DNA from: JADFSZ01 sp022560555 [NCBI: PVC group bacterium]
Lineage (GTDB): Bacteria; GCA-001730085; JADFSZ01
Reading direction: 5' to 3'
Length of the DNA stretch: 7,063 nucleotides
Assembly (NCBI GenBank): GCA_022560555.1
Contig: JADFSZ010000091.1
Location: forward strand, 1-7,063
Shown piece by piece: positions 4,071-7,063 of the stretch (the stretch's first letter is position 1; every line of letters starts with the position of its first letter). Made by a program: the position numbers and the translations under genes. A model generated the notes under the pieces. The model had not been told where the DNA came from. It saw only the letters and a list, made by a program, of their open reading frames with translations, and made no database searches.

Positions 4071-4793
4071 TTATGTGGTCTCGCTTATTTTTTCCTTACA
4101 ATAAAGCATGCGGCTGCAATCTGGGCACATTTGAACGCCCAGGCCGGACATCGTTTCATTGATCAGTTGGGGTGAGAGACGCATGTGACATCCACCGCAT
4201 TCTTGACCTTCGATACTTACAATGGCCGTGTCTTTTGTTTTGATCAAAATCTTTTCATACTGATCGAGTGTCTTAGTGTCAACGGCCTTGAGATGCTCTT
4301 CACGCTTAGCCATCCAATCCTTGATTTGGGCATCCAGTTTAGCCACTTCTTCATGGCACTCTTTTTCTTTAGCATTTAAATCATCTTCCTGAGATTTAAG
4401 ATCTTTTTTCTTCTTATCGATACTATTTTCGGAATTTTCAATTTGTTCCATTTTATTTAAAATTTCTTCCTCGAGAAGAGAATTTTTATCTTTAGCGGTA
4501 TTGATTTCATTCTGCAAAGCTTTATAGGACTCATTATCTTTCACTTGGGTGAGTTGCCCTTCGTGTTTTTTTATACCCTCAAGATTCGTGGCGACTTCTT
4601 GTTCCAAGGCATTTTTAGAGACTTGAAGGTCCTTGAATTTTCCCACATATTCATTCAGATCCACCAAAAGGGCCTTCTTTAACACTTGCAGCCGTGTCAC
4701 TTCCCTTGGATATGTATCTCTTTTTGTCCTCAGCTCCAGCATCTTTAAGTCCAGTTCGCTCAGAGACAAGAGAGCTATTATGGTGTCTTTCAT
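4071..4793 (-). CDS. Coiled-coil protein with C-terminal C4-type zinc ribbon
   Basis: The family (zf-RING_7, C4-type zinc ribbon, as in CT398/FlgZ-like proteins) has no single agreed function; members are thought to act in nucleic-acid or protein-complex roles. The 240 residues are mostly a charged, Lys/Glu-rich helical hairpin (about 5-170), including the family-typical SYKALQNEI segment. A C-terminal ribbon follows, with CGGC and CPDC as the two CxxC knuckles (199-202 and 223-226 counted from this start). There is no signal peptide or membrane segment. The ATG at 4793 is preferred because AGGTGGAAGG lies 4 nt upstream of it. An in-frame GTG at 4805 would add four residues but sits inside that ribosome binding site. 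It heads a unit with rnhA and rnpB, which suggests a link to RNA or replication metabolism, but that is inference from context only. Confidence 0.9.
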   Translation of the reverse strand: MKDTIIALLSLSELDLKMLELRTKRDTYPREVTRLQVLKKALLVDLNEYVGKFKDLQVSKNALEQEVATNLEGIKKHEGQLTQVKDNESYKALQNEINTAKDKNSLLEEEILNKMEQIENSENSIDKKKKDLKSQEDDLNAKEKECHEEVAKLDAQIKDWMAKREEHLKAVDTKTLDQYEKILIKTKDTAIVSIEGQECGGCHMRLSPQLINETMSGLGVQMCPDCSRMLYCKEKISETT

Positions 4794-4797
4794 AGAA

Positions 4798-4807
4798 CCT
4801 TCCACCT
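4798..4807 (-). promoter_or_regulatory. Ribosome binding site that fixes the zinc-ribbon gene start
   Basis: AGGTGGAAGG on the minus strand, 4 nt before the ATG at 4793. Its spacing supports this ATG over the upstream GTG at 4805, which lies within the site. Confidence 0.75.
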
Positions 4808-4946: not shown

Positions 4947-6104
4947 TCAGGATTTCGCCCTCTTTTTAATTTTTGTGAAGGCGATGGCCACTTCAACCTT
5001 GTCTTTGGACATAACCCGGCTCTTTCGAACCACACGCCCAATGGCACTCACCAGAGATTTCTTTTCAAACGAATCGATATTCAACTCCACATCACGGCCA
5101 AAAGGAGGTTCTTTGGTACTTTCGAACAAAACACCATGAGAGCATATGTTTTTTACGATTCCGAACATTTCAATCGTTTCGCCTCCCTGGGAGTAAGAGT
5201 ACAAAATAGGGACCTCGAGATTTCTTCTTGTAGATTCTCTTTTTTCAACAAGATATTGGCGGATTTGATTTTTTCCGCCTCTTTTAGCGACATAGAGGGC
5301 CATATCAGATCGTTTAATCAGTTCTTTGGCGGCAATACCATCTTCGGGAAATGTTGCAACACCTCCGCTGACGGTTAACCCTGTTTGATTCGAAAAAAGC
5401 ATTAACTGACTTCGGCAAAAACGTTCGATTTTGTCTTTGAGACGCTTTCCGAGCTCAATGGCGGCTGATTTTTGAGTTTCGCGCATGACCATAACAAACT
5501 CTTCGCCCGCATAACGCATAATCATATCTTTACCTCTCACGTTCATACGTAACACGCTGCCGATCTTCTTTAACGCGTTATCCCCCTCTTGATGTCCAAA
5601 TGTGTCATTATACTTCTTAAAATTATCCACATCAAAAAAGAGGAGGCTGAGGTTCGTATTATGTTTATGCGCTTCCTGAATTTGTTTCTCAAGATAAATA
5701 TCTAAATAGCGTCGATTAAACAATCCGGTCAGAGGATCTTTAAAAGCGGATTCGAGAACACTCACAAAAACATCCTGTTCAATCACTTTCGGATTTTTGA
5801 TAAGCTTCGTGATATTGAGAAAGTAATCAAAGATGGCCACACGCAGTCCGACATCACGCATAAGGCTTTCCGACATATCTCTTTTGTGTTCTAAAATATT
5901 TTCCCAATGAAGCAGAGCTTCCTCACCGGGCAAATCAATATTCACTAAAAAGCGAAAAATATCTTTAAGATCACATCCTCGCGAAAGGCTCGGTTGATTT
6001 TTAAGCCGGTTGACCAGCTCTTCACATTCTTTGGATGGGTTTTCATGGAGCATGCGTATGAGATCTTTACGACTATGAACTGCATCAATGCCGACGATAT
6101 CCAT
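4947..6104 (-). CDS. Diguanylate cyclase (GGDEF) with C-terminal PilZ-like domain
   Basis: Predicted to make cyclic di-GMP from two GTP in the cytoplasm. Of 385 residues, about 1-118 are a helical N-terminal region of no named type, with no membrane segment. A GGDEF domain follows (about 119-285): DPLTGLFNRR (123-132), FDVDNFKKYND (157-167) and GHQEGD (170-175). The signature loop is RYAGEEF (197-203), so the first Gly is replaced by Ala199 while the acidic pair is intact. An RxxD inhibitory site (Arg190-Asp193) lies at the standard distance upstream. Residues about 288-383 resemble a PilZ domain: basic residues 288-294, then NICSHG (319-324), a variant of the (D/N)xSxxG motif with Cys at the Ser position. 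Cyclase activity with product feedback is likely; c-di-GMP binding by the PilZ part is less sure. The gene lies 20 nt after the HD-GYP/MinD gene, almost certainly in the same operon. Confidence 0.93.
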   Translation of the reverse strand: MDIVGIDAVHSRKDLIRMLHENPSKECEELVNRLKNQPSLSRGCDLKDIFRFLVNIDLPGEEALLHWENILEHKRDMSESLMRDVGLRVAIFDYFLNITKLIKNPKVIEQDVFVSVLESAFKDPLTGLFNRRYLDIYLEKQIQEAHKHNTNLSLLFFDVDNFKKYNDTFGHQEGDNALKKIGSVLRMNVRGKDMIMRYAGEEFVMVMRETQKSAAIELGKRLKDKIERFCRSQLMLFSNQTGLTVSGGVATFPEDGIAAKELIKRSDMALYVAKRGGKNQIRQYLVEKRESTRRNLEVPILYSYSQGGETIEMFGIVKNICSHGVLFESTKEPPFGRDVELNIDSFEKKSLVSAIGRVVRKSRVMSKDKVEVAIAFTKIKKRAKS

Positions 6105-6124: not shown

Positions 6125-7063
6125 TTAGCTCACAATGGAAGCCAGGCGATACAAAGCTTTCTTCATATTTTCTTCATAACCCGCGTTCGATTTAAGATCC
6201 CTTTTCTGGCCGCTGATTTTATAGGCCATGGTTCTGACACATTCTGTCGCGCGTGAATACGGAAATTCCAAATAAAACGGCCGCTGCCGTTTGACAGATT
6301 TGGGCACGGCTTCATCCCGCACAATGAAACCTTCCATAGAAATACCGCGATTGAGAAACTGTTTCGTGATGGTGATCATTTTTTGTCCAAGTTTTTGAGC
6401 TTCTTTTTCATTTTTAACCATATTGAGGACAAGCTTAATATTGACATCATTATTATGCGCTAACAGGGTCTTGATCATGGCATAGGCGTCAATGGTGGAT
6501 GTAGGCTCCGGTGTGCATACGACAAAAACGTCATCAGCGGCCAGATTAAAATTAATGGCATTTTTCCCGAGGCCTGCTTCTGTATCAATGAGCACATAAT
6601 CAACATGTTTACGGACCTTTTCAAAGTGTTCCAAAAATATTTTTTGCTGAAGCGTATCGAGACTCGTCAGTTCCTCAATACCCGAACTTGCGGGAAGAAT
6701 ATTGAGTCCAAGTGGCCCTTCGATCATGATATCCAGAACATCTTTTTGTCCGCTTATCACGTGATGAATATTGTATTGGGGCGTTAATCCAAAAAGAACA
6801 TCCACATTCGCGAGCCCAAGATCGGCGTCAATGAGAACCACGCGTTTCCCCAATTGACATAAAGCTAATCCCAGGTTCACGGCTAAATTAGTTTTTCCGA
6901 CTCCCCCTTTTCCGCTTGTAATCGCGATCACTTTCACTTGATGAACCGGCTTTCTCGACATACGACTGTATAAACCCATAAAACTTGTAGTTTTCTGGTC
7001 CGGGCGAACAACATCAATGATTTCAACAAATGGGCCGACAATGTCGGGGTCAAATTGAGTGTT
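6125..7063 (-). CDS. FlhG/MinD-type ATPase, apparently fused to an HD-GYP tail; 5' end cut by the window edge
   Basis: The ATPase part (284 residues from the ATG at 6979) is a deviant-Walker-A P-loop protein of the FlhG/YlxH/MinD kind, which use ATP-driven dimerisation to position or count surface structures such as flagella or pili. From that ATG: SGKGGVGKT (22-30, with signature Lys24 and Lys29), LIDADLGLANVD (49-60), the Walker B strand YVLIDTEAG (128-136) and TPEPTSTIDAYAMIK (156-170). The frame has no stop before the window edge. The 28 codons upstream (7063-6980) begin NTQFDPDIVGPFVEII, a close fit to the conserved HD-GYP C-terminal stretch, and continue in frame through a short linker. 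No Shine-Dalgarno precedes the ATGs at 6979 or 6961. I therefore read this as the 3' part of a larger HD-GYP-MinD protein. The ATPase call is firm; the fusion rests on a short stretch. No catalytic HD or GYP residues lie inside the window. Confidence 0.85.
   Translation of the reverse strand, partial: NTQFDPDIVGPFVEIIDVVRPDQKTTSFMGLYSRMSRKPVHQVKVIAITSGKGGVGKTNLAVNLGLALCQLGKRVVLIDADLGLANVDVLFGLTPQYNIHHVISGQKDVLDIMIEGPLGLNILPASSGIEELTSLDTLQQKIFLEHFEKVRKHVDYVLIDTEAGLGKNAINFNLAADDVFVVCTPEPTSTIDAYAMIKTLLAHNNDVNIKLVLNMVKNEKEAQKLGQKMITITKQFLNRGISMEGFIVRDEAVPKSVKRQRPFYLEFPYSRATECVRTMAYKISGQKRDLKSNAGYEENMKKALYRLASIVS

What the first reader, a model, noticed from the sequence alone, without database searches (positions are those of the whole stretch)
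6125..7063. Apparent HD-GYP phosphodiesterase fused in frame to an FlhG/MinD-type ATPase
The reading frame of the MinD-type ATPase is open to the window edge. The 28 residues before its first ATG start NTQFDPDIVGPFVEII, which resembles the C-terminal end of HD-GYP domains (pattern xTQFDPxIVxxF). There is no stop, no frame change and no ribosome binding site at the junction. CpaE/TadZ-type proteins join receiver domains to MinD-like ATPases, but I do not know of an HD-GYP joined to one. A fusion would tie c-di-GMP breakdown physically to an ATPase that positions surface machinery. Seen: the open frame and the motif. Known: the families. Inferred: the full domain and its coupling.
Basis: partly seen in the sequence, partly recalled or inferred. 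Interest (0 to 1): 0.75.

Follow-up and report, generated by a model that had tools for sequence, protein, structure and literature searches.

The report
HD-GYP tail fused to FleN-type ATPase
A protein that probably breaks down the bacterial signal molecule c-di-GMP appears to be joined in one chain to an ATPase of a kind that positions flagella, in a bacterium with no detectable flagellar export gene, but the sequence stops before the signal-degrading part can be read.

Summary
On the minus strand, 312 codons are open from the window edge to a stop at 6125. The window is a whole 7063-bp contig, so the rest of the gene cannot be read. The first 16 residues (NTQFDPDIVGPFVEII) match the C-terminal end of HD-GYP domains: 23.2 bits on a profile of 25 HD-GYP tails, reached by none of 2.16 million shuffled 16-mers. 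Residues 44-285 are a FleN/FlhG-type ATPase (E 4e-61 to FleN). No stop separates the parts, and the tail's codons fit the genome.

No other such fusion appeared in 423 genomes (own included) searched with a joined probe, or in the titles and abstract starts of papers listed. FlhA was not found in this genome, which has nine T2SSE (pilus/secretion-type) ATPases, so 'flagellar' is probably the wrong frame. A sister ATPase in the genome is fused to a MerR domain. A GGDEF-PilZ gene follows 20 bp downstream.

The HD and GYP catalytic motifs remain unseen. A chimeric contig end is not excluded. Nor is one base error in the linker: the +1 frame stops in a GTGA at the ATPase's edge, as two overlapping genes would. 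A new domain combination is likely; its function is inferred.

The parts
7016..7063 (-). C-terminal end of an HD-GYP-type domain, residues 1-16 NTQFDPDIVGPFVEII; 5' part lies off the contig
   Evidence: Profile of 25 HD-GYP tails, 0 of 2,155,440 shuffled 16-mers as high; no Pfam hit on the fragment alone
6935..7015 (-). Linker, residues 17-43, open in frame; contains in-frame start codons ATG 6979, ATG 6961 and GTG 6937
   Evidence: No stop in frame 0; frame +1 first stop at 6936 (in a GTGA with GTG 6937), frame +2 first stop after the tail at 6890; low model confidence for residues 1-41
6209..6934 (-). FleN/FlhG-type (MinD superfamily) ATPase domain, residues 44-285
   Evidence: Pfam AAA_31/CbiA; FleN 5j1j E 4.4e-61; Foldseek top hits FleN and FlhG
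6890..6910 (-). Deviant Walker A motif KGGVGKT, residues 52-58
   Evidence: Sequence; aligned with FleN and five homologues
6131..6193 (-). Predicted C-terminal helix, residues 291-311, possibly amphipathic membrane-targeting
   Evidence: Helix 291-311 at low to moderate pLDDT; hydrophobic moment 0.62, reached by 1.5% of 11-mers of the ATPase part; inconclusive
4947..6104 (-). GGDEF-PilZ protein (385 aa), probable diguanylate cyclase with c-di-GMP-binding domain, next gene in the same direction, 20 bp after the fusion's stop
   Evidence: Pfam GGDEF 1.7e-44 and PilZ 7e-6; motifs AGEEF and RGKD in the translation; strong ribosome site -9.0

Best explanation
The gene encodes one polypeptide: an HD-GYP domain (probable c-di-GMP phosphodiesterase) followed by a roughly 27-residue linker and a FleN/FlhG-type ATPase. 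Shown: the open frame, the HD-GYP-type tail and the ATPase. Inferred: the rest of the HD-GYP domain upstream, its catalytic activity, and the coupling. Most likely working: ATP-driven dimerisation and membrane or partner binding of the ATPase places the phosphodiesterase at a chosen cellular site, probably pilus machinery since FlhA was not found. c-di-GMP is lowered there, opposed by the neighbouring GGDEF-PilZ cyclase. Alternatively, the HD-GYP ligand state gates the ATPase cycle, much as the FleQ partner of FleN is governed by c-di-GMP.
For: Open frame of 312 codons to the contig end. HD-GYP tail profile score 23.2 with 0 of 2,155,440 shuffles as high. Tail codon score at the 62nd percentile of 660 windows of 28 codons from the genome's own long ORFs. 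ATPase closest to FleN and FlhG, with similarity to FleN reaching back to residue 38 or 28, before the GTG at residue 43. Another FleN-type ATPase of the same genome is fused to MerR. GGDEF-PilZ gene 20 bp downstream. FlhA not found in G000 (0 of 2 genomes searched) and 9 T2SSE matches in G000.
Against: HD and GYP motifs were not seen; only 16 residues carry the assignment, and they score lower than 20 of the 25 reference tails. The tail starts with N where 24 of the 25 have G. The +1 frame ends in a GTGA overlapping an in-frame GTG right before the ATPase's first strand, the layout of two coupled genes, so one indel error in the linker would imitate a fusion. No second fusion among 423 distinct genomes including the own one. 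None of the three complete HD-GYP genes of the genome lies at a contig end, and the last 27 bases recur nowhere. No read coverage was available.
Confidence: 0.65

Rival explanations
1. Artefact: two separate, probably adjacent genes joined by a base error in the linker, or a contig end taken from another HD-GYP gene (misassembly or chimeric read).
For: The assignment rests on the last 84 bases of a contig of a 222-contig assembly. If one base was gained or lost in the linker, the HD-GYP gene would end at the TGA of a GTGA at 6937-6934 and the ATPase could start at that GTG, with duplex energy -4.1, a common layout of coupled genes (recalled). No second fusion found.
Against: As given, tail and ATPase share strand and frame without a stop. 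Tail codon use fits the genome. The end is not a copy of another contig of this genome at up to 2 mismatches over 27 bases. Similarity to FleN reaches upstream of the GTG.
Confidence: 0.22
2. Remnant or degenerate fusion: the upstream part is an HD-GYP-derived domain that lost the HD/GYP catalytic residues and serves only as a dimerisation or c-di-GMP-sensing module for the ATPase. (Overlaps with the main reading that one chain is encoded.)
For: Catalytic motifs unseen. Inactive signalling domains can act as interaction modules: the GGDEF domain of PdeB is inactive and mediates polar recruitment (PMC9061725, passages).
Against: The visible tail keeps the conserved TQFDP core, which argues mildly against heavy degeneration.
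Confidence: 0.2
3. The 16-residue resemblance is chance and the N-terminal extension is an ordinary FleN/FlhG leader.
For: No Pfam match for the fragment. Many FleN/FlhG relatives have variable N-terminal leaders.
Against: 0 of 2,155,440 shuffles as high; among real 16-mers examined only HD-GYP tails score in its range. The DQA-type leader seen in many relatives is absent.
Confidence: 0.05

Closest known systems
FleN/FlhG (MinD-like ATPases that set flagellar number and place; role recalled)
   Same: ATPase domain with deviant Walker A; best solved relatives are FleN 5j1j (E 4.4e-61; 41% identity) and FlhG 4rz2. FleN forms a complex with FleQ that is solved with and without c-di-GMP (entry titles).
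   Different: Preceded in frame by an HD-GYP-type tail; the DQA-type leader common in relatives is not seen; FlhA not found in the genome.
HD-GYP c-di-GMP phosphodiesterases (Pfam HD_5)
   Same: C-terminal TQFDPxIVxxF element.
   Different: In the 25 compared the frame closes soon after the element; here it runs on into an ATPase. Catalytic part unseen.
CpaE/TadZ (receiver domain joined to MinD-like ATPase; architecture recalled)
   Same: Regulatory domain N-terminal to a MinD-superfamily ATPase; a protein that looks by eye like receiver-CpaE was met in G019 (L180).
   Different: Different regulatory domain; the ATPase is FleN-like, and the CpaE-type NCBIfam model scores 34.6 against a cut-off of 154.45.
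PdeB, a c-di-GMP phosphodiesterase recruited to the pole by HubP (PMC9061725, passages)
   Same: Idea of confining c-di-GMP breakdown to one cell site.
   Different: There the contact is between separate proteins and the catalytic domain is EAL; here the link would be covalent and HD-GYP.

Membership tests
HD-GYP phosphodiesterase | C-terminal (G)TQFDPxxVxxF element | tested here: met
   first residue N instead of G, score below 20 of 25 references
HD-GYP phosphodiesterase | HD dyad and GYP motif in the same chain | not testable with these tools
   Contig ends at 7063; no continuing contig found
HD-GYP phosphodiesterase | Pfam HD_5 match | tested here: inconclusive
   No match of the 28- and 42-aa fragments; too short to judge
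HD-GYP phosphodiesterase | c-di-GMP hydrolysis | not testable with these tools
   Needs the full protein
FleN/FlhG ATPase | Deviant Walker A and DADLGLANVD motif | tested here: met
   Sequence and alignment with FleN
FleN/FlhG ATPase | Closest solved relatives by sequence and fold are FleN/FlhG rather than MinD or ParA | tested here: met
   MinD equivalog model 132.1 bits, under its cut-off of 212.9
FleN/FlhG ATPase | N-terminal DQA-type motif (function recalled; motif seen in relatives) | tested here: not met
   Absent from the 51 readable residues before the Walker A motif, present before it in many relatives; the true N-terminus is off the contig
FleN/FlhG ATPase | Flagellar context | tested here: not met
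   FlhA family 0 of 2 genomes of the phylum held; genome 91.5% complete, so a missed gene is possible
FleN/FlhG ATPase | C-terminal membrane-targeting amphipathic helix | tested here: inconclusive
CpaE/TadZ | N-terminal receiver domain and CpaE-type ATPase | tested here: not met
   FleN-type ATPase, CpaE-type model far under cut-off; no receiver domain in the readable part

The most novel reading that the evidence does not exclude
A new class of bifunctional protein in a bacterium without a detectable flagellar export gene: an active HD-GYP phosphodiesterase covalently carried by a FleN-type positioning ATPase. Paired with a probably co-transcribed GGDEF-PilZ cyclase, it would write a local c-di-GMP gradient at type IV pilus sites, so that the messenger and the positioning ATPase control each other in one chain.
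Probability: 0.28. Interest if true: 0.72.

Novelty: new variant of a known kind. Interest (0 to 1): 0.5.

Why it matters
Whether cells make local rather than global c-di-GMP pools is an open question (recalled). A phosphodiesterase covalently tied to a positioning ATPase would be a clean test object: its location, its ATP state and its c-di-GMP turnover could be measured on one chain. It would also suggest that FleN/FlhG-type ATPases have roles outside flagella, since FlhA was not found here while T2SSE-type ATPases abound, and that this family repeatedly acquires N-terminal regulatory domains (HD-GYP here, MerR in a sister protein).

Tried and rejected
Looking for the missing part in the same genome: three complete HD-GYP genes exist, none at a contig end, and the last 27 bases of the contig occur nowhere else at up to 2 mismatches. 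Looking for a homologous fusion: 59 genomes with the 312-aa protein, 386 with the first 64 residues, then 386, 2 and 40 genomes with a joined HD-GYP + ATPase probe (423 distinct genomes, own included). Limits: at most 4 candidates per genome were scored, only matches at E 1e-20 or better counted, and the lists are cut. No listed row, apart from the ones read below, spans both domains. G217, which seemed to span, is an HD-GYP gene with a stop followed by an unrelated gene. G149, matching from residue 4, is another P-loop ATPase (ApbC/Mrp-like by eye). G119 has a leader without HD-GYP signature. G019 looks like a receiver-CpaE type protein. Long open frames in G230, G175, G281 and G144, as far as fetched, are leaders without HD-GYP. 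A few other rows whose match runs past the end of the HD-GYP part (for example G405 and G404) were not read. Plasmids: 1,655 records match the ATPase; the 15 listed start at residue 19 or later. Viral contigs: no relative. Genome contigs: 7 loci, none matched before residue 30. HD-GYP genes beside FleN-type genes: none in 114 loci with a MinD-type ORF (not de-duplicated, most with about 1.5 kb of flank). Papers: HD-GYP with MinD and fusion, 17 papers; with FlhG, 5; with ParA and domain architecture, 82, of which 25 listed; with FleN, 23, of which 20 listed; with MinD-like, 3; with CpaE, 3; c-di-GMP with ParA-like ATPase, phosphodiesterase and fused, 2. I saw titles and starts of abstracts only, and none of those listed reports such a fusion. 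For MerR with FlhG and MinD, 8 papers (listing only). The review PMC8846402 (term search of the held main text) has no whole word ParA, MinD or ATPase; its architecture tables are supplements I could not open, so a database listing of this architecture is not excluded. A structure model was used to bound the ATPase domain and compare its fold; mean pLDDT 74.7 with 6 aligned sequences. On checking the draft I found the GTGA at 6937 and withdrew the argument that a lone indel is unlikely; the odds of the main reading went from 0.70 to 0.65, of the artefact from 0.17 to 0.22, of the novel case from 0.30 to 0.28, and interest from 0.52 to 0.50.

Full report
What is there. The window is the whole of contig G000:C61, 7063 bp, in an unnamed 1.66-Mb genome of 222 contigs, 91.5% complete. 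On the minus strand a frame of 312 codons runs from the contig end to a stop at 6125. That the gene is 'open to the edge' is therefore true and also marks its limit: nothing further 5' exists in this contig.

The tail. The first residues NTQFDPDIVGPFVEII look like the signature end of an HD-GYP domain. The window scores 23.2 bits; the 25 positives, each left out in turn, score 2.2 to 42.4, and 5 of the 25 score below the window; 0 of 2,155,440 shuffled 16-mers score as high (best 14.4); and of 567,834 real 16-mers the 26 unique ones no more than 6 bits below the window are the window itself and the 25 profile members. In the genome's own HD-GYP from C55 the same element reads GTQFDPEIVEAFLKAA. 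Pfam and PDB searches of the fragment alone give nothing useful, as expected for 28 residues.

The junction. No stop lies in frame. The 28 tail codons have ordinary usage for this genome (62nd percentile of 660 windows). Against a simple reading: the +1 frame has its first stop at 6936, and that TGA forms a GTGA with the in-frame GTG at 6937, residue 43, just before the ATPase's first strand. Two coupled genes often overlap in this way (recalled), so one wrong base count in the linker could imitate a fusion. In favour of one chain, similarity to FleN begins at residue 38 or earlier. Ribosome-site energies are 0.0 (ATG 6979), -3.6 (ATG 6961) and -4.1 (GTG 6937), against -9.0 for the next gene; most other window genes are also weak, so this decides nothing.

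The ATPase. Residues 44-285 match AAA_31/CbiA, FleN with E 4.4e-61 and 4rz2, which is FlhG, with 2.3e-48, and by fold FleN and FlhG first (model mean pLDDT 74.7, residues 1-41 under 50). It falls under the MinD and BcsQ equivalog cut-offs. Deviant Walker A and DADLGLANVD are intact.

Context. The next gene, 20 bp on and in the same direction, encodes GGDEF-PilZ. Its translation shows AGEEF and, five residues before it, RGKD, which fits an I-site (motif meaning recalled). It is followed by a CT398-like coiled-coil zinc-ribbon protein, an RNase H, a YjeF_N protein and a thioesterase-family protein. The genome has no FlhA match (0 of 2 genomes of the phylum held), but nine T2SSE matches, so type IV pili or related machinery are the more likely clients. 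The genome has two other FleN-type ATPases: one plain on C1, among genes that look by eye like cell-wall and mismatch-repair genes, and one on C129 fused to a MerR domain (MerR_1 E 3.8e-10). A similar N-terminus recurs in 13 further ORFs, all from the phylum of G013, giving 14 of 92 distinct MinD-type ORFs then in hand (by similarity, not by a Pfam scan of each). N-terminal fusion of a regulatory domain to this ATPase type therefore occurs more than once.

Is it elsewhere? A joined probe found no second fusion in 423 distinct genomes, own included, within the limits told under Tried and rejected; shorter probes found none either. The apparent exceptions that I read were dismissed. Held relatives are sparse: one other genome of the phylum, G001, which has one HD-GYP gene and no match to the ATPase better than E 2.3e-9. 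Seven paper searches show no listed title or abstract start with such a protein.

How it may work. FleN forms a complex with FleQ that is solved with and without c-di-GMP (entry titles). PdeB shows that a phosphodiesterase can be confined to a cell pole by a landmark protein (PMC9061725, passages). By analogy the fused ATPase would place the phosphodiesterase and couple its turnover to ATP state, against the neighbouring cyclase. All of this last step is inference.

Verdict. The complete catalytic domain is not shown. A joining error or chimeric contig end (0.22) or a degenerate HD-GYP module (0.2, overlapping with the main reading) remain open.

Noticed in passing
L078:16040-17209 (G000:C129), and L019, L158-L168, L170: MerR-type DNA-binding domain fused to a FleN/FlhG-type ATPase; Pfam MerR_1 confirmed for the G000 copy, similar N-termini in 13 ORFs of the phylum of G013.
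   Followed up: partly
window 4947-6104 (-): GGDEF-PilZ protein with AGEEF and an upstream RGKD; a cyclase with a built-in c-di-GMP-binding domain beside a putative phosphodiesterase.
   Followed up: partly
G000: No FlhA match but nine T2SSE matches and three FleN/FlhG-type ATPases: flagellar-type positioning ATPases in a genome without a detectable flagellar export gene.
   Followed up: partly
L008 (G048:C5): A FleN/FlhG-type ORF with a GGDEF-motif ORF in its flank, the only such place besides the window among 114 loci with a MinD-type ORF (L058 is the same place). Found by motif only.
   Followed up: no
window 4071-4805 (-): CT398-like coiled-coil hairpin protein with C4 zinc ribbon in the same gene run; listed start GTG 4805, but ATG 4793 has a better ribosome site.
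   Followed up: no
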